Assembly (NCBI GenBank): GCA_009781495.1
Contig: WQYA01000004.1
Coordinates: 1 to 64,000 of the forward strand
From: Cystobacterineae bacterium
GTDB lineage: Bacteria; Myxococcota; Myxococcia; Myxococcales; Myxococcaceae
Direction: 5' to 3'
Length of the DNA stretch: 64,000 nucleotides
Shown piece after piece: positions 1,254 to 18,097 of the stretch; position 1 is the first letter of the stretch; every line of letters starts with the position of its first letter. The notes below the pieces were generated by a model. The model had not been told where the DNA came from. It worked only from the letters and a program-made list of their open reading frames with translations, and did no database searches. The translations under genes and the position numbers were made by a program.

Positions 1254-1535
1254 TCATTTTCGCTGCGAAGGCGCGTTTTGTTGCGTCAACGCATAGACAA
1301 AATTCAAAACCTCGGCCACAGCATCATAAAGGCTTTCAGGAATTTCTTGCCCAACTTCCACACGAAACAAAGCCTCTGCCAAACTGATGTTGCGCAACAC
1401 AGGAATGTTGTTGGCCTTTGCAATCTCTCGAATTTTATCGGCCCGAAGGTTCAAACCCTTGGCAATCACCCGGGGGGCGCTGTCCTTCTCCTTGTCATAT
1501 TTCAGCGCAATGGCAATTTCTGCGTCTTGGGCCAT
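1254..1535 (-). CDS. Stand-alone FlhB/SctU C-terminal domain protein (FlhX-like)
   Basis: IAIALKYDKEKDSAPRVIAKGL...LFRVEVGQEIPESLYDAVAEVLNFVYAL closely parallels the C-terminus of the adjacent sctU product. Confidence 0.9.
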   Translation of the reverse strand: MAQDAEIAIALKYDKEKDSAPRVIAKGLNLRADKIREIAKANNIPVLRNISLAEALFRVEVGQEIPESLYDAVAEVLNFVYALTQQNAPSQRK

Positions 1536-1578: not shown

Positions 1579-2643
1579 CTAGGAAGAATTTTTAGGGTGG
1601 CTTAGGCCATAGACAAAATTCAATACCTCGGCCACAGCATCATAGAGTTCCTCAGGAATTTCATGCCCCACCTCCACACGAAACAAAGCATGCGCCAAGG
1701 GTACGTTCCTTAATATCGCAATGTCATGACGGCGGGCCAGCTCCTTAATGTTTTGTGCACGACTGTCCAGGCCCTTGCAAAGGACACGCGGCGCACTGTC
1801 CTTCTCCTGGTCATACTTCAGCGCAACCGCCACATGCTCCGGGTTCGTCACCACAACCGTCGCCTCCGCAACCGACGCCATTTGGGCCCCCTCTATAATC
1901 TCTTGGTGCATTTCCTTGCGCTTGGCTTTGTTGTGGGGGTCTCCTTCGGACTGTTTATGCTCGCGTTTAACTTCATCAATGCTCATCTTCAACTTCTTGC
2001 GGTAGCTGTAGTGTTGGAACCACACATCAAAAATACCAAAGGCCAAATAGACCAAACTGACACGCACCACGAGCCGAAAAATCAACTCCCCCAACAACGC
2101 CATCGTCACATTGGCTTGCTGCGTCACCGTCAACGTAATGAGTCCCAGCGCATCCTTAATAACAAGGTAGACAACAAAACCCGTAACGCCCATCTTCACC
2201 AGAGACTTGGGCAACTCCATCAGTTGTTTCTTGGAAAATAAATTTTTTATGCCGCTCAGAGGGTTTAACTTCTCCAACTTCGGCATCAATACCTTGGGGC
2301 TAAACAGGGCCCCTACCAATAAAAAATCCGTTAGACTGCCCACCAACGCACAACTGATAACCACAGGCAACGCGAGCAACAGCACATTCCATAGGCCCAT
2401 GTTCAAGGCATCCCGCGTCGCTTGAGACAAAGTCTCCGGGTGGGCAATGGCATCAAACGTAAACAGAAACATCATGTTGATGCGCTCTTCCCAAAGCGGC
2501 CAAATCGCCTTCAATACCCCCATGGATACAACAAAGCCTAAGACGCTCTTTAAGTCCTGGCTCTTCCAAACATCGCCTTCTTTGCGCGCATCCTGAATCT
2601 TCTTGTCGGTAGGTTCTTCTGTCTTTTCTCCACCCTCAGCCAT
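1579..2643 (-). CDS. sctU: T3SS export apparatus switch protein SctU (FlhB/YscU family)
   Basis: Four N-terminal TM segments, NPEH autocleavage-type motif, conserved C-terminal domain; starts MAEGGEKTEEPTDKKIQDARKEG. Confidence 0.95.
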   Translation of the reverse strand: MAEGGEKTEEPTDKKIQDARKEGDVWKSQDLKSVLGFVVSMGVLKAIWPLWEERINMMFLFTFDAIAHPETLSQATRDALNMGLWNVLLLALPVVISCALVGSLTDFLLVGALFSPKVLMPKLEKLNPLSGIKNLFSKKQLMELPKSLVKMGVTGFVVYLVIKDALGLITLTVTQQANVTMALLGELIFRLVVRVSLVYLAFGIFDVWFQHYSYRKKLKMSIDEVKREHKQSEGDPHNKAKRKEMHQEIIEGAQMASVAEATVVVTNPEHVAVALKYDQEKDSAPRVLCKGLDSRAQNIKELARRHDIAILRNVPLAHALFRVEVGHEIPEELYDAVAEVLNFVYGLSHPKNSS

Positions 2644-2656
2644 GGACGCTCCCCCC

Positions 2657-3487
2657 TTAGCCTAAAAAACCAACAGCACGGCCAAAGCGCAAAAACATGA
2701 CGCCATATTCTTGGACGAGGCGGCCCAAAATTAAATGCAAAGAAAAAATTACCATCAACGCCGCAACAGCAGGCTTTATCTGCATCGCCATGAAAAATAC
2801 TTGGATTTGGGGAGCAGCTCGGTTGATGACCCCAAGGGCCGTCTCCGTCAAAAATATGGCAAGCAATACGGGGGAGGACAAAGCCAAACCAATGCGGAAC
2901 AAGTCGCCAAATACACGGATGACCAGCTCAAAAAAAGGCCCCATCCCCAAAGAAAACTGAGGAAACTCATTCAACGGCAATTTCAAAAAACTGTCGGCCA
3001 AATTCTCAATAACCCAATGGTGCCCATTCAACGTCAAAAACAACACCACCGCCAGTTGAAACTTCAACGAAGAATACAACGTCACTTGACGCTGTATTTG
3101 CGGCACCAACATCTGCGCCTGGGTGGCGCCCGAAAAACTGTCTATAAATGCCCCCGCCGTCCCCACTGCCTGAAAAACCAAATCCACTATGAACGCTAAA
3201 GCAAAACCAATAAAAACTTCTTTCAGCAACAACGCTAAATAGGGAATTACCGATAGCGGAATTTGAGAAATTTGATCCGTTAATGCGGGGAATAATACCA
3301 CCGCTAACACCATCCCTAAGCCCATACGCACCTGCCCCGGTATGCTTTCCCCTCCAAGAAATGGCGTGAAAATAACCACCGGCATCAGCCGCGCAAAAAT
3401 CAGCGCCATCGAAAAAACAGCCAGACTGAAGTCGACTCGAATTCCAAACTCATTGCGCGCTTGAGTCAGAATTTCATCCAAATTCAT
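2657..3487 (-). CDS. sctT: T3SS export apparatus protein SctT (FliR/YscT family)
   Basis: Membrane protein with FliR-like motifs, in syntenic position. Confidence 0.92.
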   Translation of the reverse strand: MNLDEILTQARNEFGIRVDFSLAVFSMALIFARLMPVVIFTPFLGGESIPGQVRMGLGMVLAVVLFPALTDQISQIPLSVIPYLALLLKEVFIGFALAFIVDLVFQAVGTAGAFIDSFSGATQAQMLVPQIQRQVTLYSSLKFQLAVVLFLTLNGHHWVIENLADSFLKLPLNEFPQFSLGMGPFFELVIRVFGDLFRIGLALSSPVLLAIFLTETALGVINRAAPQIQVFFMAMQIKPAVAALMVIFSLHLILGRLVQEYGVMFLRFGRAVGFLG

Positions 3488-3750
3488 GGAGCAACCAAAT
3501 TGGGAAACTGATCAAAAATTCTATAGGTAAACCGCAACAGCTGTGTCCCTATCCACGCACCTGCAAAACCCAAAGTGCCAAACACCGCTATCAGCTTGGG
3601 AGCAAAAGAAAGCGTCTGCTCTTGAATTTGCGTCGTCGCTTGCAAAACAGAAATGGTGACGCCTACCAGCAAACTGACAAGCACAGGAGGCGCTGCTGTC
3701 AACAACACCAAATATAAAGCTTGCTGCGTGAGTGAAGTCAGTTGATGCAT
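3484..3750 (-). CDS. sctS: T3SS export apparatus protein SctS (FliQ/YscS family)
   Basis: 88-aa two-TM protein with VSLLVGVTISVLQATTQIQEQTLSFAPKL motif. Confidence 0.95.
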   Translation of the reverse strand: MHQLTSLTQQALYLVLLTAAPPVLVSLLVGVTISVLQATTQIQEQTLSFAPKLIAVFGTLGFAGAWIGTQLLRFTYRIFDQFPNLVAP

Positions 3751-3765
3751 AACCTTGCTCCCTTG

Positions 3766-4560
3766 TCAGAGATAACCGGAAACCAAACCCTTGGCGATAA
3801 GATACCAACCATCCACCAATACGAAAAGCAGCAGCTTAAACGGCATGGATATGGTCGTCGGCGACAACATATGCATGCCCAACGCAAGCAAAATGTTCGC
3901 CACCAACATGTCCACCACAATGAATGGAATGAACAACAAAAAACCAATCTGAAAAGCCTGCTTCAACTCCGAAACCACAAAGGCAGGCGTCAATACCAAA
4001 AAATCATCCGGCTCAATGTCCGCCCTGTCTGCCGGCGCCCGCATCTTTCGCGCAAGGTTATAAAAAAGCGACTTGTCTTTGGCTGTAACACGCTTCTTTA
4101 AAAATACCCGCAAAGGCTCCCTCGCCCTCTGCGCCGCCTCCACCAACTGCCCCGCAGACTTCGCAGAAAGCAGCCCCTCACTGTTCTGTATGGTGGCTGG
4201 GTTCGCCTCCCGGTACATCTCTTGCAGCGTGGGCGACATGATGTAGACAGTTAGAATAATCGCTAACCCCGTTATCACCTGCGTGGGCGGAATTTGCTGC
4301 GTGCCTATGGCCGAACGTACAACAGACAAAACCACCGAAATTTTGACGAAGCTGGTCACCATCAACAACACAAAGGGCGCAAGCCCCATCGCCGCCAAAA
4401 CCAACAACAACACCATCGGCCGACTCGCATAGGAATCCGGCGCTATGGTGTCCATCGACAAAGCCTGTGGCTTGCCTCTCCCCTGCGCCAAAACCCACGT
4501 GGGAAGCCAAAACATCGTCAGCAACCCAATCTGCAAAAACCGCGCATTCCAAGTCCTCAC
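3766..4560 (-). CDS. sctR: T3SS export apparatus protein SctR (FliP/YscR family)
   Basis: FVLLMVTSFVKISVVLSVVRSAIGTQQIPPTQVITGLAIILT and C-terminal FIPFIVVDMLVANILLALGM motifs. Confidence 0.95.
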   Translation of the reverse strand: MRTWNARFLQIGLLTMFWLPTWVLAQGRGKPQALSMDTIAPDSYASRPMVLLLVLAAMGLAPFVLLMVTSFVKISVVLSVVRSAIGTQQIPPTQVITGLAIILTVYIMSPTLQEMYREANPATIQNSEGLLSAKSAGQLVEAAQRAREPLRVFLKKRVTAKDKSLFYNLARKMRAPADRADIEPDDFLVLTPAFVVSELKQAFQIGFLLFIPFIVVDMLVANILLALGMHMLSPTTISMPFKLLLFVLVDGWYLIAKGLVSGYL

Positions 4561-5006
4561 GACTCTTCCTTTTCCTTGGTCGCTTTCCTATCCAAAAGCT
4601 TCTTTAAAAACAAACCCGGCTCACCCGATGGTTTGTTGTTGCTGCTGAGCACTTGCTCCACTTCTTCTGTGTTCAGCTTCGACAAAATTGTTAAATCCTT
4701 CTCTCCGTTGGATAACAAAAAATAGTCCTTGGCTACCTTCACCAACAATAAACTTTTTCTCGCATCCACAGAAACTCGCTCAACAATGGAAATGCTTCGC
4801 TGCCCCCCCCCATCCCTGAGCTTCAATAAACGCTTCCCCCCCCAACTTAATAAAATATAGGCCAATAGAACAACCCCCGCCAAAACCAGCAAAGTCTGAA
4901 ACAACATCCACCCTAACTCCAGCGGAGGAAGCTCAGAGCCGGACTCCGGCAGGGCTTCTGCATTGGCAAGCGCAACAGCCCATCCTCGAAACAACAGGGA
5001 CAACAT
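4557..5006 (-). CDS. FliO-like single-TM protein
   Basis: One TM segment followed by RSISIVERVSVDARKSLLLVKVAKDYFLLSNGEKDLTIL, a FliO-type core; lies immediately before sctR, as fliO precedes fliP. Confidence 0.75.
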   Translation of the reverse strand: MLSLLFRGWAVALANAEALPESGSELPPLELGWMLFQTLLVLAGVVLLAYILLSWGGKRLLKLRDGGGQRSISIVERVSVDARKSLLLVKVAKDYFLLSNGEKDLTILSKLNTEEVEQVLSSNNKPSGEPGLFLKKLLDRKATKEKEES

Positions 5007-5029: not shown

Positions 5030-6343
5030 CTATGAACCTTCAACAGCAATCAGCCGTATGCCCAACTGCCCCTCAAACTCAACCAGCTCGCCCTGCCCAA
5101 CCGTCTTCCCATTGATAACCAAATTCAAAGGGTCCGTCGCAAGCCGACCCAGATCGATCACATGCCCTACTTTCATTTCAATCACTTCTTCTAAAGTCAC
5201 TGGAATGCGTGCAAGCTCAACAACAAGCCTTAATGGTACATCGCTCAGCAACGGCGCAGCACTTAGTTGGTTTATATCCATGGCTTCCCCTTTTCTTTCA
5301 TCCCCTCCAGAAAGATTTTGTTCCAGACTTTCTGACAACATCCCCAATACAATCTTCTCAACCTCCGCCTTATATCCTCTCCCGTCAAAACTAAGCCGAC
5401 AACCCAAATGGCCCAAAAACCCTGTGCCTATCTTTAACTCGGCCCTCCCCTCCTCCCGCTTGTCAGGCCTCAAATTCAGCTTGTCTAACAAAACCACTGC
5501 CCCGGGATGAAGTTCTCCAAATTCAGCCACGGGAATCTCTGCATAGCCAATCTCTGCACGCAAAAACAGCTCCGGCAACGCAAGACGAGACTTCGCTCGA
5601 ATCAAATTCTGCTGCATTCGATATGCGCGAACAGGCGCATCCGCATGTGGCTGCAATTTGGCCAACACTGTCGCAGGAATAAAAAACCGAAAATATCCCG
5701 TATAGCCATTGATGCTGACAGACAAGCTCATCAAAACCATCTGCGTCTCTGACGCCATTAAGGACATGATGGACTTGCTGTTGCTGAAAATATTGTCCAG
5801 GCGAACGTGAATTTTGCCGGTTTCGGCATTTACAAACATCGCCCTCAAAACCTGCAAAGCGAGAAATTGAAGAACACCCTCTTCCAACTCCGTCAATGCA
5901 CGAATTTCTATGGACTCACTGTTGGCCCCAAGCAACATCTCCACCGCTTTGTGCGCAAAACCAAGCTCAATCTCCCAAAACCCCTTCGGTTGGTATGGCC
6001 GAAAGGACAACACAGCCAGGAAAGTGGGCTCAGCAATGCAAGAGGGCAATGCAGAAACAGCCAAAAGTTGAAAATAATCCAAGGTCAGTTGAACATCACT
6101 CTGAAGACAATTTCGAAGCGCCTTGGACATGGCTGCCAACATCTCACCAGGCTCAGCAAACGTCGGGAACAACCATTCCAAACTCCGAAACAGTTGCACC
6201 TCTTGGCGAGAAACTTTGGGAAGCCCCGGAAAAAAATCCACCCTCTTCCAAGAATTCATGGAAAGCAAGTCTGTCTGCGTCACCACCATGGTGTGGTCGC
6301 CTGCTTGAGAAGAAGGCATCGCTATCTTGTTGGTATGCGTCAC
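5030..6343 (-). CDS. sctQ: SctQ (FliM/FliN-like C-ring protein)
   Basis: 437 aa with SpoA-like C-terminus (VTLEEVIEMKVGHVIDLGRLATDPLNLVINGKTVGQGELVEFEGQLGIRL). Confidence 0.85.
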   Translation of the reverse strand: MTHTNKIAMPSSQAGDHTMVVTQTDLLSMNSWKRVDFFPGLPKVSRQEVQLFRSLEWLFPTFAEPGEMLAAMSKALRNCLQSDVQLTLDYFQLLAVSALPSCIAEPTFLAVLSFRPYQPKGFWEIELGFAHKAVEMLLGANSESIEIRALTELEEGVLQFLALQVLRAMFVNAETGKIHVRLDNIFSNSKSIMSLMASETQMVLMSLSVSINGYTGYFRFFIPATVLAKLQPHADAPVRAYRMQQNLIRAKSRLALPELFLRAEIGYAEIPVAEFGELHPGAVVLLDKLNLRPDKREEGRAELKIGTGFLGHLGCRLSFDGRGYKAEVEKIVLGMLSESLEQNLSGGDERKGEAMDINQLSAAPLLSDVPLRLVVELARIPVTLEEVIEMKVGHVIDLGRLATDPLNLVINGKTVGQGELVEFEGQLGIRLIAVEGS

Positions 6344-7434
6344 AAAATCATCTCAAATTTCATATCGGTCAGAGTCAAACCTCGAACGTCCAGCGCATTG
6401 CGCAAAGCTTCGCTTTGCTCTTCAACTGTCTTTAATGCGTTCTTATTAGAACCAGAGAAAACCACGTTTATTTTTCCACCAGATGCCGAAACCCGCAAAG
6501 AAAGCCCAGACAAAATGTCCGAACGCAAATCAATCTGAAATTCTGCATTGCCTGCTTTGTTGGTCCCCACACGTACCCGCTCAACAATCTTTTGAGCAAT
6601 TTCACTCGCAATCCTTCTTAGACGCTCCGAATCGCCCGTGGATTTGGGACGAACAATGGGAGCCGGCTCCATGAAGGCGGGGTTGGTGCTCAACAATGTC
6701 CCCAACCCCTCATGCGCTTCTTTGCCCAAACGTTTGCCATCCGACGCTTGCTGCTTGTGTGCGCTCTTCTCTTCGAGATGCGCACTCCTGGCTTCTGCTT
6801 CGGCCTCTGTTTGTTTTCCCGCATCCCCTTTCGCTTGAGCAGAACGCGCCCCTAATTGGCTCTCCGTCTGTGAAGCAGACTTTTGGCCCACTTCTGCCTG
6901 CTCCCGAGCTTCTGCCTTGGAAAGCTCCCTGTCACTTTGCTGAAGCTTGGTCGCCTGCTCTGAATGTTTCCTCGCCTGCTCTTGGTTCTCCAATACGGCT
7001 TGACGAGCCCCCTGCTCCTCTAACTGCTTCCTTGAAATCGTCTTGTTGCGCTCTGCAAATAATTTTGCAGACTCAGCCTCCTCGGGACTTTGACCCATTA
7101 ACTCGCGCAATACAGCATGGGTTTCCCTGTCTCCAGGACGTTTGGCCAATACACCATATCTGCCAAGCATCCGCTCCCTGTCTTCTTTCGCCCGCTCAGA
7201 TGAAGAAGGATCTGCCTTCTCCAAAAACTTTGTATCGGCCTCTGAATCATGTCCACGGTTGATGCTTTGCCGTTGAACCTGCCCCTGCTGTTGCTGAGCA
7301 TCGCTCACAAGTCGAGAAAAAGCAGAGTCCCCTGCCTGCCTGTCCACTCGACGCCTGTCTTCCATACGCCTTTGCTCGGCAACACGTTCAGCTTGGCGAA
7401 CTGCTTCACGGTCATCATCAATTCTGCTCATCAT
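6340..7434 (-). CDS. SctP/FliK-like needle-length regulator candidate
   Basis: Long charged low-complexity N-terminus; FliK-like C-terminus (LRSDILSGLSLRVSASGGKINVVFSGSNKNALKTVEEQSEALRNALDVRGL). Confidence 0.65.
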   Translation of the reverse strand: MMSRIDDDREAVRQAERVAEQRRMEDRRRVDRQAGDSAFSRLVSDAQQQQGQVQRQSINRGHDSEADTKFLEKADPSSSERAKEDRERMLGRYGVLAKRPGDRETHAVLRELMGQSPEEAESAKLFAERNKTISRKQLEEQGARQAVLENQEQARKHSEQATKLQQSDRELSKAEAREQAEVGQKSASQTESQLGARSAQAKGDAGKQTEAEAEARSAHLEEKSAHKQQASDGKRLGKEAHEGLGTLLSTNPAFMEPAPIVRPKSTGDSERLRRIASEIAQKIVERVRVGTNKAGNAEFQIDLRSDILSGLSLRVSASGGKINVVFSGSNKNALKTVEEQSEALRNALDVRGLTLTDMKFEMIL

Positions 7435-7925
7435 CTCCCTCCCCTCTGCTTCTGTAAATGCAAAGTATTCCCTATCTCCTCCTGCAAAAGCTCCTCACGC
7501 ATTTGCCGCTCATAACGCACTTGTTTAACCCATTGCTCCTTGTGCTTCTCAATGGCTTTCTTCTCTTTGGCTGCCTCTGCCATCTCCATCCTCCTTTGCT
7601 CCATCCGCTGCCTGGCACGCTCCACATTCCCCTCCTGCGCTCCTATCTCCAACTCCAACTTCGCCTCCTCGTCCCTCAGCCTTTGCTCAAAACGTTCAAT
7701 TTGCTCAAATGCATTGGACGAAACCGCACGCGATAAAACAGATGTACGATAGGCGAGCACCTTCTCTTTGCGTTCCTGCTGCCGCCTTGTCAAATCAGAA
7801 CGCATGGTTTCTAAAATTTCCTTCTGATCGTGAAAAAACCGCATCGCTTCAGAAAAAGCCTGCTTCGCGGCTTCCTCAGCTCGTTCTCGCATTTCCAGCA
7901 GCGTTTGCAGTCGATAAGCCGGCAT
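7431..7925 (-). CDS. SctO/FliJ-like coiled-coil protein
   Basis: 164-aa charged coiled coil directly after the ATPase gene. Confidence 0.75.
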   Translation of the reverse strand: MPAYRLQTLLEMRERAEEAAKQAFSEAMRFFHDQKEILETMRSDLTRRQQERKEKVLAYRTSVLSRAVSSNAFEQIERFEQRLRDEEAKLELEIGAQEGNVERARQRMEQRRMEMAEAAKEKKAIEKHKEQWVKQVRYERQMREELLQEEIGNTLHLQKQRGGR

Positions 7926-7940: not shown

Positions 7941-9263
7941 TCACTCTTCAAACAACGCGACGAGTGCTTCTGCTGTTTCTTCAAAACTCACGTTGCTGGC
8001 TGTAGACTGCTTTAGAAAGTCAATGATGGCGTCATATTTGTCTATGGCATAGTCCGTTCGAGGATCTGTCCCATATTGATAGGCACCCAACAGAATTAAA
8101 TCCCTTTGTTTTTCATAGGTTGCAAGGGCCTCCCGAAGTTTTCCCGCCGCCACTTTGTGCTCCTTGCTGACCACCTGGCTCATGACGCGCGACAACGAAG
8201 CCAAAACATCCATCGCAGGCCATTGGTTGCGCTCTGCAAGCGTGCGGTTGAGAATGAAGTGTCCATCCAAAATACCGCGCACTTCGTCCGCAATGGGCTC
8301 TTCCATGTCGCCACCGGCAACCAAAACCGTATAAATGGCCGTACATTTGCCCTTCTCTGAATTCCCAGTCCTCTCAAGAATTTTGGGGAGCATGGAAAAT
8401 ACCGAAGGGGGATATCCCTGGCGTGCAGGGGGTTCTCCTATGGCCAAACCAATTTCACGCTGCGCTCTTGCAAGACGCGTTACCGTATCCAACATGAACA
8501 AAACATTGCCTCCACGCTCGCGAAAGTATTCTGCAATGGAGGTCGCAACAAAACCGGCGCGCAAACGTACCAAAGAAGGCTGGTCCGAAGTCGCGCAAAC
8601 CACAATGGAACGTTTCAGCCCCTCTCCTAAAGCGTCTTCAACAAACTCTAAAACCTCACGGCCACGCTCCCCAATCAGCGCAATAACGGCCAACTCGGCA
8701 GCTGTGTTGCGCGCAATCTGCCCCATCAACGTGGACTTCCCAACACCGGAGCCTGCAAAAAGCCCAATGCGTTGCCCTTCTCCTACCGTCAGCAATCCAT
8801 CAATGCAACGTACACCCAAAGGCAGCGGCCTCAAAATACGTTGGCGCTTGAATGGATCTGGACAATCTCTGTCAACCGACCACTCCATCAACCCCTCTTG
8901 AGGCAAAGGACGGCCATCAATGGGCTCCCCTAAACCATTGAGTACGCGCCCCAACAAGGCATCTCCTACCCGAATGCTCAAAGGACGGCCTGTGGGAAGC
9001 ACTTCGCTGTCTGGACCTATGCCCCGCAACTCCCCTAGGGGCATCAGCATCACCTCATCCCCTTGAAAACCGACTACCTCAGATCTAATGGCTGCACGTC
9101 CACGCCCCTTAATATAGCATAACTCGCCTACACGCACGTTGGGTACAGCAGCTTTAATCACCAAACCCGTCAGCTCCGTCACCCGCCCACGAATGCTGCA
9201 CAATTGCGCATTCTTCAGCAAATTTTGATAGCGCCCCCATGAGACGGCAAGGCCCATGCTCAA
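7941..9263 (-). CDS. sctN: T3SS ATPase SctN
   Basis: Walker A GLFAGSGVGKSTLMGQIARN; ALIGERGREVLEFVEDALG; FMLDTVTRLARAQREIGLAIGEPPARQGYPPSVFSMLPKILERTG. Confidence 0.97.
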   Translation of the reverse strand: MSMGLAVSWGRYQNLLKNAQLCSIRGRVTELTGLVIKAAVPNVRVGELCYIKGRGRAAIRSEVVGFQGDEVMLMPLGELRGIGPDSEVLPTGRPLSIRVGDALLGRVLNGLGEPIDGRPLPQEGLMEWSVDRDCPDPFKRQRILRPLPLGVRCIDGLLTVGEGQRIGLFAGSGVGKSTLMGQIARNTAAELAVIALIGERGREVLEFVEDALGEGLKRSIVVCATSDQPSLVRLRAGFVATSIAEYFRERGGNVLFMLDTVTRLARAQREIGLAIGEPPARQGYPPSVFSMLPKILERTGNSEKGKCTAIYTVLVAGGDMEEPIADEVRGILDGHFILNRTLAERNQWPAMDVLASLSRVMSQVVSKEHKVAAGKLREALATYEKQRDLILLGAYQYGTDPRTDYAIDKYDAIIDFLKQSTASNVSFEETAEALVALFEE

Positions 9264-9979
9264 TCTGCCTTTCCAGAAGCGTTGGCCTCAAACAACGTGC
9301 GCAAAGCTTTGAATTGGGTTTCGAGTTGAGCATCAATAACTCCAAACTCGGTTTGCACAATGCAACCCCCTGGCTGTACCTCAGCATCGTCACGAATGGC
9401 TATGTCAACGCTGCGTCCAATCAGCTCTATCAATTCAGAACGCTTCTCTCTGAGCAACTTGGCATCCTTCGGATGAACACGCACAAGCATGGCCTTGGCT
9501 GTTCGCAAATTTTCAATGGCGTTTGCACAAATTTCCAAAAGCAGCTTTGGATCGCGTTCCAAATCTCTGCCTATCACTTTCTCAGCAATTCGGCAGGCCA
9601 ACTCAATGAGCTCTGGTTCGGCCTCTGCCAACATCATTCCCACCTGCATCTTCGCCTTGGCCAACTCCGTGGCTGCCTGGGTTGCAACTTCTGCCAAAGC
9701 TTCTTCGCGTGTTTCCTGAAAAATAACTGCTCGCTGGCGCTCAGCCTCAGCCAACAATTCTTGAGCTTTTTGTTGGGCCTCTTCAATAATCTCTTCGGCT
9801 TTCGAGCGCGCTTCTATCTCTTTCACCGTTACAAGACGGGAAGGCACAACAGGAGGGCGCGTAGCGGAGGGAAACCGGGGCGAGGCTATAGATTCAAGAC
9901 CAGACACACTGTTCACCAAATCCTCGCGAATGATTTTCCCTAGGCTTCTGGGCGGGCCTTTGTTGTCAGTATCTGCCAT
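9260..9979 (-). CDS. sctL: T3SS stator SctL (FliH/YscL family)
   Basis: Coiled N-terminus, C-terminal FliH-like domain (KVIGRDLERDPKLLLEICANAIENLRTAKAMLVRVHPKD); overlaps sctN by 4 nt. Confidence 0.88.
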   Translation of the reverse strand: MADTDNKGPPRSLGKIIREDLVNSVSGLESIASPRFPSATRPPVVPSRLVTVKEIEARSKAEEIIEEAQQKAQELLAEAERQRAVIFQETREEALAEVATQAATELAKAKMQVGMMLAEAEPELIELACRIAEKVIGRDLERDPKLLLEICANAIENLRTAKAMLVRVHPKDAKLLREKRSELIELIGRSVDIAIRDDAEVQPGGCIVQTEFGVIDAQLETQFKALRTLFEANASGKAD

Positions 9980-9998: not shown

Positions 9999-11828
9999 CT
10001 AGCTCTTGCGATTTGGTTTTTCTCCAATATCTTTCTGAACACGGTAACCCTGTGTAGCGTTATCACCTTCTTGTCTTATGGAGCCTACCCCTTCTGCTGT
10101 ACGCTTGCGAGGAACAGACTGCAGTGCCGGCACACGAACCACCGACGATTTGCCGATAAAACCTTTGTGGTCCGTCCGTTCCTCTTTGTGTGCCGACACA
10201 CGAGCAACAGCTGATTTGTCGGTGAAACCTTTGTGGTCCGTTCGCTCCTCTTTGTGTGCCGGCATACGAGCAACAGACGATTTGCCAGCGGTCTCATGCT
10301 GGCCTGTTGTTCTGAACGACGGCAGAGGCAACACCGGCCGCTCTGTGCTGGCGGTTACCGTCACATCTTGAACTTTTGTTTTGGACGGAGGTGGGGGCGG
10401 CAATCGCTTTGCTCTCACTTCAGACGGAGGCACGGCCAACTGCTTTGCACTGGCTGCTTGAGACGAAGGTGGGGGCAACAATCGCTTCACTCTCACTTCA
10501 GACGGGGGCACGGCCAACTGCTTTGCACTGGCCGCTTGAGACGAAGACGGGGGCGGCAATCGCTTCGCTCTCACTTCAGACGGGGGCAAGGCCAACTGCT
10601 TTGCACTGGCTGCTTGAGGCGGGGGAGAGGAACCCAAGCGTTCCGGTATCTGCGGTTTTGGCAGTCGATTGGGGTGGCTGCGCGGCTGAGAAACCGCTGC
10701 GACATTTTCTCTCTGACTGCCAGGACGCACAAGCTTTGAAGGCGTAGGTTCAGGAAGCTTTCGGGCCGACAAACGAGAGGGCTTTATATTTGGCGGCGCC
10801 GGCAAACGCGCAGAAGCCATACCTAGGGAAGAACTGGGGGCAAGTCTCTTTTGGCCAGGCAGCTGAGCGATGGATACTTCAGGGCTGGGCAAAATAAATG
10901 GACGTTCAAGAAATCCTCGTTTTGCCAAAAACTCAAGTTGTTCAAGAAGATCCTCCTTCCCACCATCCGCGCGAATTTTCTTTTCTTTTTCTTTTTCAAA
11001 CCAGTTGGCCAACAACTTGCCCAACTCTCCTTCATATCGCCGTGTCATTTTAGAGGCAAAATCGACGGATTCCGCCAAACAAGCTTTTATAATACGCCGT
11101 GCACCCGCGCTCCGAATCGCCGAAGAAGGACTTTCCATGGCACCATATAATTCCAACAATCTACGCGCATCGTTGGCTTGCAAATGGCGCGTCCCGGCCG
11201 CTTCACAAGCTTTTTGAGCAAGCATTCTTTGGTCGGGTGGAAGCACGTCGAAAAAATTCTGACGTTCGCCGCTGGGCAATCCTGCCAATGCCGTGGCAAA
11301 CACACGAACGCCCATTCGGTCACAAACGGTAATCAGTTCCCCAGGTTGCAGGCCCATCACATCTTCAAACCTAAAGTGAGCGCTGACAGAAGCATTCTGA
11401 AGTTTTTCTTCAAGTTTCCAACGTACAATGGAAAGGACCTCTGCTCTGGGCTCCCTGTGCATCTGCGTTTCTTGAAAACCAGGAAGTGCAGCTTGAACGG
11501 AATGCGCCAAAGCAGAAGGCAACGTGCGCAAAACAACTTCAGCAACAACAGGTTTTTCTTTGCTCAACAATTCAGCCAGGTGTTTTGGATCTGCTGTGGC
11601 AAGCCTCTTGCGCCGCATGCTGAGCATACGACGCATCTTCTGCACCAAAAAAGGAATCCTCTGCTCCTTGGGAATGGCGCGAAAAGCTCCAGAGCGATGC
11701 TTCAAAAGCTCTGCTTCTTCTTCAGGTAAAAACTGAAATGCCTCATCGGCCCAAGCGCCACCAAAAACAACGGAGGCCAAAAGCAACATGGTCTGTCGCT
11801 TGGAAAGTGAAGCAAAGTAGTGTTCCAC
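9999..11828 (-). CDS. FliG-like protein in the sctK position with long repetitive Pro-rich C-terminal tail
   Basis: Segments resembling FliG-N, FliG-M (LAELLSKEKPVVAEVVLRTLPSALAHSVQAALPG) and FliG-C (FRFEDVMGLQPGELITVCDRMGVRVFATALAGLPSGERQNFFDVLPPDQRML); tail holds 26-aa and 22-aa repeats. Confidence 0.65.
   Translation of the reverse strand: MEHYFASLSKRQTMLLLASVVFGGAWADEAFQFLPEEEAELLKHRSGAFRAIPKEQRIPFLVQKMRRMLSMRRKRLATADPKHLAELLSKEKPVVAEVVLRTLPSALAHSVQAALPGFQETQMHREPRAEVLSIVRWKLEEKLQNASVSAHFRFEDVMGLQPGELITVCDRMGVRVFATALAGLPSGERQNFFDVLPPDQRMLAQKACEAAGTRHLQANDARRLLELYGAMESPSSAIRSAGARRIIKACLAESVDFASKMTRRYEGELGKLLANWFEKEKEKKIRADGGKEDLLEQLEFLAKRGFLERPFILPSPEVSIAQLPGQKRLAPSSSLGMASARLPAPPNIKPSRLSARKLPEPTPSKLVRPGSQRENVAAVSQPRSHPNRLPKPQIPERLGSSPPPQAASAKQLALPPSEVRAKRLPPPSSSQAASAKQLAVPPSEVRVKRLLPPPSSQAASAKQLAVPPSEVRAKRLPPPPPSKTKVQDVTVTASTERPVLPLPSFRTTGQHETAGKSSVARMPAHKEERTDHKGFTDKSAVARVSAHKEERTDHKGFIGKSSVVRVPALQSVPRKRTAEGVGSIRQEGDNATQGYRVQKDIGEKPNRKS
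10115..10290 (-). repeat. Intragenic tandem repeat, ~66-bp period (22-aa unit KSxVARxxAHKEERTDHKGF)
   Basis: cctttgtggtccgtycgytcctctttgtgtgcc recurs; visible in the translation. Confidence 0.85.
10380..10620 (-). repeat. Intragenic tandem repeat, 78-bp period (26-aa unit QAASAKQLAxPPSEVRxKRLPPPSSS)
   Basis: Three consecutive near-identical units in DNA and translation. Confidence 0.9.
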
Positions 11829-11859: not shown

Positions 11860-12627
11860 CTATTTCGCTCTCGCTGCCGCACGGCTTTTAAAAACAATCC
11901 ATATGCAAATACCCAGCATGAGCAAAATCAACGAACCACCTACGGCAACGATGATACGAAATTGATCCGCACTGTCCTTGGTCATCTGCAAACCCAACAC
12001 CGCCTTCAAACGCTGATGTATATCCAACTCTGCTTGGGGAGGAGCTGCTCGCACCATGAGAACTTGGACTGCCCCCGGCGCCAATTGCGGCACCGCTGCC
12101 GCCACAAAACGCTGTATGGCGGCTTCTTCTATGGGTGGCTTCTCTTCTCCCGGCACGCGATATTTCATAAACACCGACGCTGAAGGCCTGGGCTTATCTG
12201 CTTCAGGCACCAAGTCATTCGCTTCCGGCAACATCACCAAAGTCCTGACTTCCAAAATTCCAGGAATTCGATTGAGCGCATTCGAAATCTCCCCACCCAA
12301 AGCCTCCAGCAACATCGCCCGCTCCTCCACCTGCGTCGGAATCATCCCCTTGTTCTTCTTAAACAAAGAAAGCCCGTCTGCACGAACGCGAGGCAAAGAA
12401 TTGTCCGTCAACAACTGTACAGCATTCACCAGGTCTGCTTTTGCAACGCTGATGATATAGGTAGGATCATCCCCTTCACTGCGCTGCTTCGACGCCGAAA
12501 TACCGTTACGCTGCAACAATACATAAATCTCGTTGGCTTCTTCCTCAGACAAGTCGTGTTGCAAATCTTCCGTGCAAGCAAGCAAACCCATAGCCAATAA
12601 GACAACAAACCCATATTTTCGAAACAT
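11860..12627 (-). CDS. sctJ: T3SS inner-ring lipoprotein SctJ (YscJ/PrgK family)
   Basis: Lipobox GLLAC, YscJ core (NEIYVLLQRNGISASKQ...ARAMLLEALGGEISNALNRIPGILEVRTLVMLP), C-terminal TM. Confidence 0.95.
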   Translation of the reverse strand: MFRKYGFVVLLAMGLLACTEDLQHDLSEEEANEIYVLLQRNGISASKQRSEGDDPTYIISVAKADLVNAVQLLTDNSLPRVRADGLSLFKKNKGMIPTQVEERAMLLEALGGEISNALNRIPGILEVRTLVMLPEANDLVPEADKPRPSASVFMKYRVPGEEKPPIEEAAIQRFVAAAVPQLAPGAVQVLMVRAAPPQAELDIHQRLKAVLGLQMTKDSADQFRIIVAVGGSLILLMLGICIWIVFKSRAAARAK

Positions 12628-12773: not shown

Positions 12774-13328
12774 TTAAACTTGCGTCTTCAAGGTGTCTTT
12801 TAGGCCCGAGGTTGTCTTTTCTACTATTTTGCTCGTTAAGTCCATTTCTTGGCTGTATTTATACATGCTGGCCTGCAAGCCTAACAATTCTGTATTGGAA
12901 AACTTCTTCCCCTGCAATGCAGAGCCAATCAGCTTGTCTAAGGACGCTTGCCCCTTTTCAACACCATCCATCAAACTCGTCAAATTGCGAGTCGTCAGCG
13001 AAGAAGCCGCTGCTTGCGTGGTGGATTCTGTTGTCCGCGCTTTGCCCGTCTCGCTCAATGCCTGGGTCCGTATTTTGCCCATGCGCGCCTTGTCCGTTTT
13101 GGCAATTTCACCCGCATCTCTCACAATATCCGCTTTGTTCAGTGCATGGGCTGCCTGAACCTGTGAAACCGACTGCACCTGACGAATATGGCCAACTTTG
13201 CTTTCTGTCTGCGCGCTCAATGCCTCGTCAAATTTGCTTGGGCCCTGTTTGGCCTGTTGGGTCACTTGCTCTGGAAGCTTTTGCTGCGCCGCCTGCGCTG
13301 CTGCTACCCCCGTGAGTGGTTCCGCCAT
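12774..13328 (-). CDS. sctI: SctI-like inner rod protein
   Basis: C-terminus FSNTELLGLQASMYKYSQEMDLTSKIVEKTTSGLKDTLKTQ matches the YscI/PrgJ pattern; directly upstream of sctJ; SD gaggag. Confidence 0.72.
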   Translation of the reverse strand: MAEPLTGVAAAQAAQQKLPEQVTQQAKQGPSKFDEALSAQTESKVGHIRQVQSVSQVQAAHALNKADIVRDAGEIAKTDKARMGKIRTQALSETGKARTTESTTQAAASSLTTRNLTSLMDGVEKGQASLDKLIGSALQGKKFSNTELLGLQASMYKYSQEMDLTSKIVEKTTSGLKDTLKTQV

Positions 13329-14061
13329 GGTTCTCTCTCCTCTTTAAAGTTGTCTCATCTGATTGTCGTGTATCCTCCACCAAAAGTTGCTTCAATTTTT
13401 CAATTGCACGCGCATGTAACCGAGAAGCCCAGCTTTTGGATTGCCCTATCGCTGCACCCGCCTCCTCCAAAGTCTTCGAATCAAAATAATAAGCCTGCAA
13501 CAATCTGCGTTCCTTCTCGGCCAACATCCCCATCGCTTTGCGAATACGCTTCTTGGTCTCTTCAAACTCCAAACGCTCTTCTATAGAAAATCGATCGCTG
13601 GCTATCTGCAGGCTTTCTGCCGCATCCAAGCTCGTCGCATAAATAATGGCCAAACCTGAAACAGCACTCGAAATTTCTCCCACATCTTCCGCAAATGAGC
13701 TGTGCACACCCGCATCTCTGTCTGAAAGATTGCTCAAATAGGCATTCGAACGCTCGGCGCCTAAAGCGTGTACGTCTGAGCTGAGTATGCCCATCTTCCT
13801 TAGCCCATCAAAAATAGCCCCCTTCACCCTATAATGTGCAAAAGTTAGAAAGTTCGCCCCCATGCTCGGATCAAATCGCTCCGCTGCCTCCAATAACCCC
13901 ATGTGCCCATAGGCCATCAGCTCATCTAAATCTACTTGGAAACGAAATTGCCTGCATATACCTGTAGCAATGGACCTCACATAGGGTCCATATTTTTCTA
14001 GGAGCTGATTTTTGTTCTCCCCGAATTTTTCCAAAACGACTCCTATTCCGCCTTCGACCAA
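13228..14061 (-). CDS. FliA-like sigma-70 family factor
   Basis: Region 2 (VDLDELMAYGHMGLLEAAERFDPSMGANFLTFAHYRVKGAIFDGLRKMG) and region 4 (LAEKERRLLQAYYFDSKTLEEAGAAIGQSKSWASRLHARAIEKLK). Confidence 0.88.
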   Translation of the reverse strand: MVEGGIGVVLEKFGENKNQLLEKYGPYVRSIATGICRQFRFQVDLDELMAYGHMGLLEAAERFDPSMGANFLTFAHYRVKGAIFDGLRKMGILSSDVHALGAERSNAYLSNLSDRDAGVHSSFAEDVGEISSAVSGLAIIYATSLDAAESLQIASDRFSIEERLEFEETKKRIRKAMGMLAEKERRLLQAYYFDSKTLEEAGAAIGQSKSWASRLHARAIEKLKQLLVEDTRQSDETTLKRRENHGGTTHGGSSSAGGAAKASRASDPTGQTGPKQI

Positions 14062-15080: not shown

Positions 15081-15635
15081 CTAGCGCAAGTTGGAAATGC
15101 TGTTCTTCGCCGTGTCGTGCCGCGTCTTCATCGCGTTGGAAAGTGAGGAAAATACCAGGTTCTCACGCTGAAGCGCCGCCTGCATGCTCAACAATTGCTT
15201 GTTCTCGTCTTGCTGCGTCTTCAGGTTGGCATCAAAACCGGCCATATCTGAGGTGCCAGCAACCGAAGAGGTGCTTGATCCTGAAGGCACCCCCCCGGTT
15301 GTCGCCACACCCGGAGTCGTCACCGTCGTGCCCAATGTATTGCTCGTAAAGCCTGCATAGGTGGCGTTGACTGCACCCGGAGCATAGGAAACAGCTCCCG
15401 AAGATTGCTGATTGTTCAACGTGTTCACAGAAGAAACCGCTGCACTGACAATGGCAGGCCCTCCTACGAAAGCATTGCCGGCAATGCCCAACCCTGAGCC
15501 TACCACACCCGCCGCAGCACCCAGCCCCGCTTGAATCCGGTTCCCAAACGATAAATCCGGCGTCTGCCGGCCTACTGAAATGTTGGTCGACAAAGGCAAT
15601 GCCGAACCTGTGTTGATACGATTGACCCCTGACAT
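15081..15635 (-). CDS. Gly-rich protein with SctF-needle-like C-terminus
   Basis: C-terminus LLSMQAALQRENLVFSSLSNAMKTRHDTAKNSISNLR resembles PrgI/YscF C-termini; SD ggagg upstream of the start. Confidence 0.5.
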   Translation of the reverse strand: MSGVNRINTGSALPLSTNISVGRQTPDLSFGNRIQAGLGAAAGVVGSGLGIAGNAFVGGPAIVSAAVSSVNTLNNQQSSGAVSYAPGAVNATYAGFTSNTLGTTVTTPGVATTGGVPSGSSTSSVAGTSDMAGFDANLKTQQDENKQLLSMQAALQRENLVFSSLSNAMKTRHDTAKNSISNLR

Positions 15636-16292: not shown

Positions 16293-17462
16293 CTAGCCCT
16301 CAGAGGAGGGGGGCGTGTAGGGCACTTTCCACCTCCTGTGCACCCACATCCATTGCTCCGGACAACGCCGAATGTGCGCTTCCAAGGCCGCCGTCAATTG
16401 CCCCAGGTGCCGGCTTAGCTCAGCCTTGCTGTCGGCCTTCGCTTCCACAACAAAAGGGCCTTCTACCAAAATCCGCATGCCGTCGCGCGTACGCTCGGAC
16501 AATACCAAATAGGTGGGCGCCTTGGACACAACGGCCGCCATCGACAAGGCCGGCGCCGTCGCCGTCATACGCCCAAAAAAAGGAACAAATATGGCCTTCT
16601 CGGCAGCTAGAGACTGGTCTATCAACTGGACGACGACCTTCCCCTCCCTTAATGCCCTTAACATATGCCTCAATGCCCCCCGCGGGTGAATTAACGCCAT
16701 CCCCGCCTCATAACGCGCCTTAAACAACTGCGCGTTAAACGCCCCCGCCAAAGGACGGACCACCGCTGCTAGACGCATACCACGGGCCGCCATTAACTCC
16801 GCCATTAACTCCCAACTGCCAAAATGTGCAGAAGCGACGAGTATACCCCCGCCACCCTCCCTCTCTAAGGCCTCCTCTAAATCATGCCAATTCCCTAACT
16901 CTAGAGAGATATCCCCCTCCAGAATATGGCCGCATACCCCCTCCAGCGCACTTAAAAACATATGTCCATAGGAGGCGCGGGCAATACGGCGGCACGCTTT
17001 GGGGCTATGTTCGGGAAAAGCACGGCGCAAATTCTCCAAGGCAATGCGGCGGCGAATTCCAAGGGCAAAGGCCAAGCTTCCCAAACCAAAAGCCAAAACC
17101 CGGCGTAACCGGGGGCCAAGCCTGCGAAGTGCTGCAACCCATATACGCGCGTTGAGCGCTGCTGGGCGAGAAACCGGACGGGCGAGGAAACGCTCCAAGG
17201 ACACCTCCAGGGGCTTAGCCGCTTTTGCGGCAGAGCGCAAATGCCCTCGCGGCGTTGTATTTTTTGTGAAGGCCCCATGCCTCTTTTCTTGCTTTTTTTT
17301 CAAAGCTTCGGCAAAAGCAGCGTCCTTGGCAACTCCAACAACAAAAAGGAGGTGATGTAGAATGACAACCATCCGTGTCAAAGACGGCGAATCCATTGAA
17401 GGCGCTCTCAAACGCTTCAAAAAAGCAACGGAAAAAGCCGGCATCCTCTCCGAAATACGCAA
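16293..17462 (-). CDS. Lipid A lauroyl/palmitoyl acyltransferase (LpxL/HtrB family)
   Basis: [34 protein letters not shown] and [21 protein letters not shown]; true start probably internal because the ORF overlaps rpsU. Confidence 0.85.
17345..17356 (+). promoter_or_regulatory. Extended 12-nt Shine-Dalgarno AAAGGAGGTGAT for rpsU
   Basis: Matches the canonical complement of the 16S 3' end, 5 nt before ATG 17362. Confidence 0.85.
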
Positions 17463-17556
17463 GAGGGAGCACTACGAAAAACCCTCCGTCAAGAAGAAGA
17501 AAAAATCACTGGCCGCAAAGAAGCGTGCGGTGAAAAAACTGCGCAAGGTATATTAG
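17362..17556 (+). CDS. rpsU: 30S ribosomal protein bS21
   Basis: [48 protein letters not shown]. Confidence 0.97.
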
Positions 17557-17647
17557 CCTTGGGCGTTGTTTTGGCCAAACCAGCCAAGAGTCTCTTCTCT
17601 TGGTTGGTTCTCTCTTGGTTGTTTCTCCTTATATAAAGAGGTCTTTT

Positions 17648-18097
17648 GTGAGCACATTAAGAGAACAATTGGAGGCGGATTTAAAGCAGGCCATGCGGGC
17701 CCAAAATGCTTTGGAGCTTTCTGTCCTGCGTATGGCCAAAAGCGCTATCCAATACAAAGCGGTGGAGCCCAATGCCAAACCGCTGGTCGACATGGACATT
17801 GTTGCCGTGTTGCGCAAGCTGATCAACCAGCGCAAGGACGCTGCAGAGCAGTTTCGCCAAGGAAACCGCGAGGAGCTTGCTGCCAAAGAGGAAAGCGAAA
17901 TTCTCATCTTGCAGCGCTATTTGCCAAAACCCTTGAGCGCAGAAGAATTGAGCCAAGTCGTTCGTCAAACCATTGCAGAGTTGGGTATTTCGGGACCCAA
18001 AAGCTTTGGTGTCGTCATGAAAAAAGTCGTCGAGCAAGTCCAAGCTCGCGCCGAAGGAAAAGCCATTTCAGAAGAAGTCAAGAAACAACTGGTTTGA
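17648..18097 (+). CDS. yqeY: GatB/YqeY domain protein
   Basis: GTG start; LKQAMRAQNALELSVLRMAKSAIQYK...VLRKLINQRKDAAEQFRQGNREELAAKEESEILILQRYLPKPLS. Confidence 0.95.
   Translation: MSTLREQLEADLKQAMRAQNALELSVLRMAKSAIQYKAVEPNAKPLVDMDIVAVLRKLINQRKDAAEQFRQGNREELAAKEESEILILQRYLPKPLSAEELSQVVRQTIAELGISGPKSFGVVMKKVVEQVQARAEGKAISEEVKKQLV

What the first reader, a model, noticed from the sequence alone, without database searches (positions are those of the whole stretch)
9999..11828. FliG-like switch protein in the sctK slot of a T3SS
The first ~330 aa show three successive segments resembling FliG-N, FliG-M and FliG-C, followed by ~270 aa of basic Pro-rich tail. In injectisomes this gene position is SctK, which is not generally recognised as FliG-like. 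A real FliG homologue here would help connect SctK to FliG and raise the question of what a rotor-type protein does without a flagellum.
Basis: inference. Interest (0 to 1): 0.8.

Follow-up and report, generated by a model that had tools for sequence, protein, structure and literature searches.

The report
FliG relative inside myxobacterial needleless T3SS
In myxobacteria, the secretion machine of the type that predatory species use to lyse prey carries a true relative of FliG, the flagellar rotor protein, in the position where injectisomes carry SctK; it has lost the charged residues that turn a flagellum, so it probably works as a fixed connector, and it makes the old guess that SctK descends from FliG testable.

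Summary
Confirmed: the minus-strand gene 9999-11828 (609 aa, GTG start) encodes a divergent FliG homologue. Its family profile finds FliG structures in the PDB at 3.5e-14. Pfam FliG_C matches 27 of 28 family members and FliG_M 20 of 28; the FliG_N-like start is only weakly supported. Architecture differs from FliG: N-like, one middle armadillo domain, FliG_C and probably a second FliG_C-like repeat; ARM_C is missing. Myxococcaceae add a Pro-rich tail. The motor charges (E. coli K264, R281, D288, D289) are replaced in all or nearly all of 28 members, whereas flagellar FliGs of the same phylum keep them. The gene lies between sctJ and sctL in an operon colinear with fliFGHIJKMNOPQR-flhB. It occurs in 90 of 96 family genomes searched, M. 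xanthus included, and in 22 genomes of 16 other families. Abby & Rocha 2012 stated that Myxo systems lack FliG; a 2023 review lists no SctK for the M. xanthus T3SS*, which is needed for prey lysis. Most likely a non-rotating adaptor joining the SctJ/SctD ring to SctQ. A direct sequence link to SctK is suggestive only. The myxobacterial short T3SS has a truncated relative in the same slot.

The parts
9999..11828 (-). FliG-like gene (609 aa, GTG start), in the sctK/fliG slot
11610..11828 (-). aa 1-73: FliG_N-like segment (weak)
   Evidence: hhalign best at FliG_N 32-67, score 23.8 vs shuffle max 16.9; AF2 helices 10-22, 27-33, 36-50, 54-77
11388..11609 (-). aa 74-147: FliG middle domain (ARM_M); E of EHPQ kept (E91)
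   Evidence: family FliG_M 2e-8, 20/28; hhalign 1.1e-9
11139..11387 (-). aa 148-230: FliG C-terminal (torque) domain with FxFED motif, motor charges lost
   Evidence: Pfam FliG_C 5.3e-5, 27/28 members; residue test
10899..11138 (-). aa 231-310: probable second FliG_C-like repeat (C')
   Evidence: Pfam FliG_C at the corresponding segment in L106, L108, L113; hhalign best at FliG 266-340, score 25.4 vs shuffle max 16.3; AF2 pLDDT 95
10002..10865 (-). aa 322-609: basic Pro-rich tail, present in the Myxococcaceae-type proteins, absent or short in most relatives elsewhere in the phylum
11860..12627 (-). sctJ (inner-ring lipoprotein, FliF homologue), directly upstream
   Evidence: PF01514 2.4e-20; TIGR02544 7e-37
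9260..9979 (-). sctL (FliH homologue), directly downstream
   Evidence: PF02108 9e-22; TIGR02499
7941..9263 (-). sctN ATPase
   Evidence: TIGR02546 1e-188
7431..7925 (-). sctO (FliJ-type stalk)
   Evidence: PF16789 5.7e-31
6340..7434 (-). sctP/FliK-like
   Evidence: PF02120 3.6e-6, below cut-off
5030..6343 (-). sctQ with recognisable FliM middle domain plus FliN domain: likely partner
   Evidence: PF02154 2.6e-12, PF01052 2.5e-22
4557..5006 (-). fliO homologue
   Evidence: PF04347 1.9e-10
3766..4560 (-). sctR (FliP)
   Evidence: sequence and gene order; not scanned separately
3484..3750 (-). sctS (FliQ)
   Evidence: sequence and gene order; not scanned separately
2657..3487 (-). sctT (FliR)
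   Evidence: sequence and gene order; not scanned separately
1579..2643 (-). sctU (FlhB)
   Evidence: PF01312 1.1e-114
12774..13328 (-). sctI-like inner rod
   Evidence: NF038054 0.0096; ortholog L105 PF17001 0.0069; both weak
13228..14061 (-). sigma-70-family factor of the operon
   Evidence: PF04542, PF04545

Best explanation
The gene encodes a motor-less FliG homologue that is a fixed structural part of the myxobacterial non-flagellar T3SS (the 'needleless' T3SS* type). Shown by sequence: it is homologous to FliG over the middle and C-terminal domains; it sits at fliG's place in an operon colinear with the flagellar fliF-to-flhB order; it lacks ARM_C and the residues that take torque from MotA; it very probably carries a second FliG_C-like repeat. 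Inferred: it sits under the inner-membrane ring (SctJ, perhaps also the FHA protein SctD), its middle and C domains hold the FliM-like half of SctQ, and SctQ holds SctL and the SctN ATPase. It thus anchors the sorting platform as SctK does in injectisomes, without rotating. The Pro-rich tail is probably a flexible tether or docking arm added in Myxococcaceae.
For: Homology. Position and linkage: one search shows the gene next to sctJ in 15 of 18 loci outside the family (of the other three, one lies on a 3.4-kb contig, one at a contig end, and one shows no recognisable sctJ), and before sctL wherever that gene is contiguous; searches show the same in Myxococcus, Archangium and the own genus. 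Conservation: 90 of 96 family genomes and 22 genomes in 16 other families. Motor residues lost while flagellar FliGs keep them. No MotB plug and no flagellar FliG in the own genus. SctQ keeps a FliM middle domain in these systems (E 1.7e-8 to 5e-14) but shows none in the rhizobial and Leisingera injectisomes tested. SctN of these systems is one clade apart from FliI and from injectisome SctN. SctK is known to link SctQ to SctD. T3SS* is needed for prey lysis and is listed without SctK.
Against: No interaction or complex was modelled or measured. The single protein's Pfam score is only just above cut-off. Foldseek with the models ranks FliG first but with weak scores (best E 8.8e-3 for the whole model, 0.29 for C-C') and low TM, so the fold test is supportive, not independent proof. 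The FliF-binding tail and the HPQ of EHPQ are missing, so the contacts cannot be the flagellar ones in detail. In several genomes sctJ and this gene lie alone, away from other T3SS genes.
Confidence: 0.75

Rival explanations
1. It is a working rotor/switch protein: the machine turns, driven by MotAB- or ExbBD/AglRQS-type stators.
For: FliG_C homology; some relatives with this gene also have MotB; myxobacteria use MotA/TolQ-type motors for gliding (general knowledge).
Against: K264, R281, D288 and D289 equivalents are replaced in all or nearly all of 28 members. No MotB plug in the own genus, in Myxococcus G024 or in several other carriers. ARM_C, which takes part in flagellar ring stacking, is missing.
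Confidence: 0.06
2. It is SctK: canonical SctK proteins are FliG descendants and this is the undegraded form, so SctK and this gene are orthologues. (Compatible with the best explanation; a claim about descent.)
For: Same J-K-L position. NolU, a rhizobial SctK, aligns with the middle domain above all shuffles (31.3 vs max 26.0; 24.2 vs max 18.8 with more distant members), and FliG's M domain falls on the same NolU stretch at about shuffle level. The short T3SS of Myxococcaceae has a 145-180-aa slot protein matching the N+M part (33.3 vs shuffle max 15.4). A FliG-like role for SctK was proposed earlier.
Against: HrpB4 and the Leisingera SctK show nothing above shuffles. The NolU score falls when diverse sequences are added. 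No YscK match in the phylum. SctK is about 210 aa, with no detectable FliG_C.
Confidence: 0.4
3. A flagellar FliG was recruited secondarily into an existing T3SS that had no FliG.
For: FliG is not described in injectisomes; many Myxococcota also own a flagellar fliG.
Against: The whole operon follows flagellar gene order including fliO. The gene is present throughout this T3SS type in 17 families and is far more diverged from flagellar FliGs of the same genomes (20-27 bits) than from its own family.
Confidence: 0.1

Closest known systems
Flagellar FliG (Pfam FliG_N, FliG_M, FliG_C; structures 1lkv, 3hjl, 8umd)
   Same: Middle and C-terminal domain homology, FxF(E)D motif, E of EHPQ, place between FliF/SctJ and FliH/SctL
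   Different: No ARM_C, probable extra FliG_C-like repeat, motor charges lost, no FliF tail partner, Pro-rich tail in Myxococcaceae, not in a flagellum
SctK (YscK / OrgA / MxiK / HrpB4 / NolU)
   Same: Gene position J-K-L; expected adaptor role between inner ring and SctQ
   Different: Core of about 310-360 aa instead of about 210; no Pfam SctK match; direct sequence link not established
Myxococcus xanthus T3SS* (MXAN_2434-2464; Abby & Rocha 'Myxo' systems)
   Same: Same gene set and lineage; the homologue is present in M. xanthus AM003 in such a locus. That this locus is MXAN_2434-2464 is inferred from gene content
   Different: The descriptions read here name no FliG or SctK component; the window belongs to a small-genome relative known from MAGs

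Membership tests
FliG | Sequence homology to FliG_M and FliG_C | tested here: met
FliG | FliG_N domain | tested here: inconclusive
   hhalign 23.8 vs shuffle max 16.9; the strongest Pfam FliG_N hit in the family lies in the C region
FliG | N - ARM_M - ARM_C - C1-6 architecture | tested here: not met
   ARM_C missing from the alignment; second C-like repeat instead
FliG | Charged torque residues K264, R281, D288, D289 (E. coli) | tested here: not met
   A182, D199, K206, A207 in the window protein; replaced in all or nearly all of 28 members, kept in 15 flagellar FliGs apart from a few D/E swaps
FliG | EHPQ FliM-binding motif | tested here: not met
   E invariant, P mostly kept outside Myxococcaceae, H and Q lost
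FliG | Partner FliM middle domain present | tested here: met
   PF02154 2.6e-12 in window SctQ
FliG | FliF partner with C-terminal FliG-binding tail | tested here: not met
   SctJ is a 255-aa lipoprotein ending shortly after one C-terminal membrane helix
FliG | Gene order fliF-fliG-fliH-fliI | tested here: met
   sctJ-gene-sctL-sctN
FliG | Cooperation with MotAB stators | tested here: not met
   No MotB_plug match in the three genomes of the own genus, in a search with positive controls; own genome 88% complete
SctK | Gene between sctJ and sctL | tested here: met
   canonical order seen in L121, L122, L123
SctK | Sequence similarity to an SctK family | tested here: inconclusive
   NolU above shuffles, HrpB4 and Leisingera SctK not; no YscK in the phylum, where the search had no positive control
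SctK | Binds SctQ and SctD, localises the sorting platform | not testable with these tools
   needs experiment or complex prediction

The most novel reading that the evidence does not exclude
SctK of all injectisomes descends from FliG. The myxobacterial long T3SS keeps a nearly whole, motor-less FliG, the short T3SS keeps an N+M remnant, and canonical SctK is the end of the same erosion, so the injectisome kept a complete but non-rotating switch complex (G, M, N).
Probability: 0.42. Interest if true: 0.8.

Novelty: new variant of a known kind. Interest (0 to 1): 0.62.

Why it matters
The reference study of T3SS evolution states that Myxo systems, its earliest-branching non-flagellar T3SS, lack FliG. 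Finding a FliG relative there changes the inferred order of losses: the torque-bearing residues were lost before the protein was. It proposes the missing adaptor of the M. xanthus predation T3SS*, a genetically tractable system. It also gives the open 'SctK = FliG (?)' entry a concrete test.

Tried and rejected
Single-sequence PDB search found nothing relevant. NCBIfam has no match for it. Foldseek with the whole model and with C-C' ranks FliG first but is too weak to stand alone, probably because small armadillo domains and domain flexibility limit it. The YscK search in the phylum gave nothing, but nothing rang in the controls either, so absence is not proven. SctK comparison with the Leisingera protein and HrpB4 was null. 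The long SctJ ORFs first looked FliF-like; they are run-on frames of ordinary SctJ lipoproteins. The Pfam FliG_N hit at 2.2e-4 lies in the C region, not at the N-terminus, so it was not counted for FliG_N.

Full report
WHAT IS THERE. The ORF at 9999-11828 lies on the minus strand and encodes 609 aa from a GTG start whose position is conserved in relatives. Its neighbours on the same strand are, in order, a sigma factor (13228-14061), an SctI-like protein, SctJ, this gene, SctL, SctN, SctO, an SctP/FliK-like protein, SctQ, FliO, SctR, SctS, SctT and SctU. SctV lies on another contig of the same genome. This is the flagellar order fliF-G-H-I-J-K-M/N-O-P-Q-R-flhB, including FliO, which a recent preprint reports as frequent in Myxococcota T3SS.

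HOMOLOGY TO FLIG. The single protein passes the Pfam FliG_C cut-off narrowly. A 22-sequence alignment from the family finds FliG as its best PDB hits. A 28-sequence alignment that spans the phylum finds FliG at 3.5e-14 with the middle and C-terminal domains in order. Pfam matches FliG_C in 27 of 28 and FliG_M in 20 of 28 members. Profile-profile comparison with 15 flagellar FliGs (14 from Myxococcota, one from E. coli) scores 96.6 against a maximum of 19.7 in 30 column shuffles. Domain by domain, M and C fall on their own FliG counterparts (1.1e-9, 4.5e-8); the N segment falls on FliG_N with modest support. The AlphaFold model (pLDDT 83.9; 95.2 for C-C') is almost entirely helical, and its first 13 PDB matches are FliG-containing entries, but none reaches E 0.001 and TM-scores are low. 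I treat the fold evidence as consistent only.

WHAT IS DIFFERENT FROM FLIG. First, the alignment jumps from the M domain to the C domain: ARM_C is missing. Second, the extra helical segment after C looks like a second FliG_C: Pfam reports FliG_C there in three relatives, its best place on FliG is the C domain, and it has a similar helix pattern. Third, the residues that carry torque are gone. E. coli K264, R281, D288 and D289 correspond to A182, D199, K206 and A207; the first is replaced in all 28 and the others in all or nearly all, whereas flagellar FliGs of the same phylum keep them apart from a few D/E swaps. Fourth, SctJ is a short lipoprotein without a FliF tail. Fifth, the own genus has no MotB plug match and no second FliG_C match. 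The Pro-rich basic tail occurs in the Myxococcaceae-type proteins; the relatives elsewhere in the phylum are mostly 330-400 aa.

DISTRIBUTION. With E below 1e-100 the gene is in 90 of 96 family genomes searched, counted from the table; 22 genomes in 16 other families of the phylum have it more diverged (about 45-370 bits). Flagellar FliGs of the same genomes score only 20-27 bits with the same profile, so the two kinds separate cleanly. Named carriers include Myxococcus xanthus, Corallococcus, Archangium, Hyalangium and Pyxidicoccus. The nearest named records are MAGs Co191P4bin16 and Th196P3bin117. In 15 of the 18 more distant loci fetched the gene is next to sctJ; in several, sctJ and this gene stand alone. 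SctN of these systems forms one clade, separate from FliI and from injectisome SctN; the tree is unrooted.

THE SCTK QUESTION. Position makes it SctK-like: rhizobial, Leisingera and Mycetohabitans T3SS show J-K-L with a SctK of about 210-230 aa there. Sequence does not yet prove the link. NolU aligns with the M domain above all shuffles, more weakly once divergent SctKs are added; HrpB4 and the Leisingera SctK do not. The second ('short') T3SS of Myxococcaceae lacks this gene, but a conserved 145-180-aa protein sits between its sctJ and sctQ and matches the N+M part of the family (33.3 against at most 15.4 in 40 shuffles). It looks like a truncated relative. SctQ follows the same gradient: its FliM middle domain is clear in the long systems, weaker or lost in the short ones, and undetected in the rhizobial and Leisingera injectisomes tested. 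This is the pattern expected if SctK is what remains of FliG, but it is circumstantial.

FUNCTION. In injectisomes SctK anchors SctQ to SctD. T3SS* (MXAN_2434-2464) is recruited to prey contact sites and is needed for prey lysis; it is described as having SctD, J, I, Q, R-V, N and L, with no SctK. The M. xanthus homologue lies in a locus of that content, so I infer that it is the missing adaptor. The own genome has an FHA/YscD-like protein with a C-terminal membrane helix close to sctV, with relatives at the same place in two complete genomes, which could be the membrane partner beside SctJ. The adaptor role is inferred, not shown.

PUBLISHED STATE. Abby & Rocha 2012 (PMC3459982) list FliG among proteins that Myxo systems lack. 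A 2014 review (PMC4045390) gives 'FliG (?)' for SctK and says that a FliG-like role could be hypothesised. Searches for papers with SctK and FliG, or myxobacteria, T3SS and FliG, found no report of this protein; only open-licence papers were searched, so prior mention elsewhere is possible.

Noticed in passing
L169:6988-11678 (G192:C44); also L200, L201, L202, L203, L204; divergent copy L168:9315-12454: A five-gene operon with no flagellar or T3SS export gene found next to it: a membrane protein that joins a FliF-C-like part to FliG_M/FliG_C, a TPR protein, MotA-like, and two MotB-like proteins. The fused protein matches over most of its length in 7 genomes of the phylum, plus a partial match in an eighth. 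It looks like a rotor-stator module without a flagellum.
   Followed up: partly
L167:6409-6900, L186:6369-6893, L187:6333-6794, L188, L189, L190: Short T3SS of Myxococcaceae: a conserved 145-180-aa protein between sctJ and sctQ resembles the N+M part of the FliG-like family.
   Followed up: yes
L101, L102, L103, L110, L113: sctJ and the FliG-like gene stand together without other recognisable T3SS genes in the stretches read.
   Followed up: partly
window 15081-15635; L170:13763-14626 and 17146-17847: Proteins with weak C-terminal matches to the T3SS needle family (E 0.062, 0.0054, 0.99, all below cut-off) in a system called needleless.
   Followed up: no
window 1254-1535: A 93-aa second copy of the SctU/FlhB cytoplasmic domain beside sctU, conserved in the family.
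   Followed up: no
L170:11983-12948 (G000:C14), L139:11506-12591, L141:13000-14070: SctD-like protein: FHA plus YscD cytoplasmic domain, Pro-rich linker and one C-terminal membrane helix with no periplasmic part, close to sctV.
   Followed up: partly
G000, G001, G002: 2.1-2.7 Mb genomes in a family whose other members are mostly 4-14 Mb keep the long T3SS.
   Followed up: no
L181:5385-5894 (Undibacterium sp. YM2 plasmid): Plasmid flagellar gene cluster with a 169-aa hypothetical protein where fliG and fliH would be expected.
   Followed up: no
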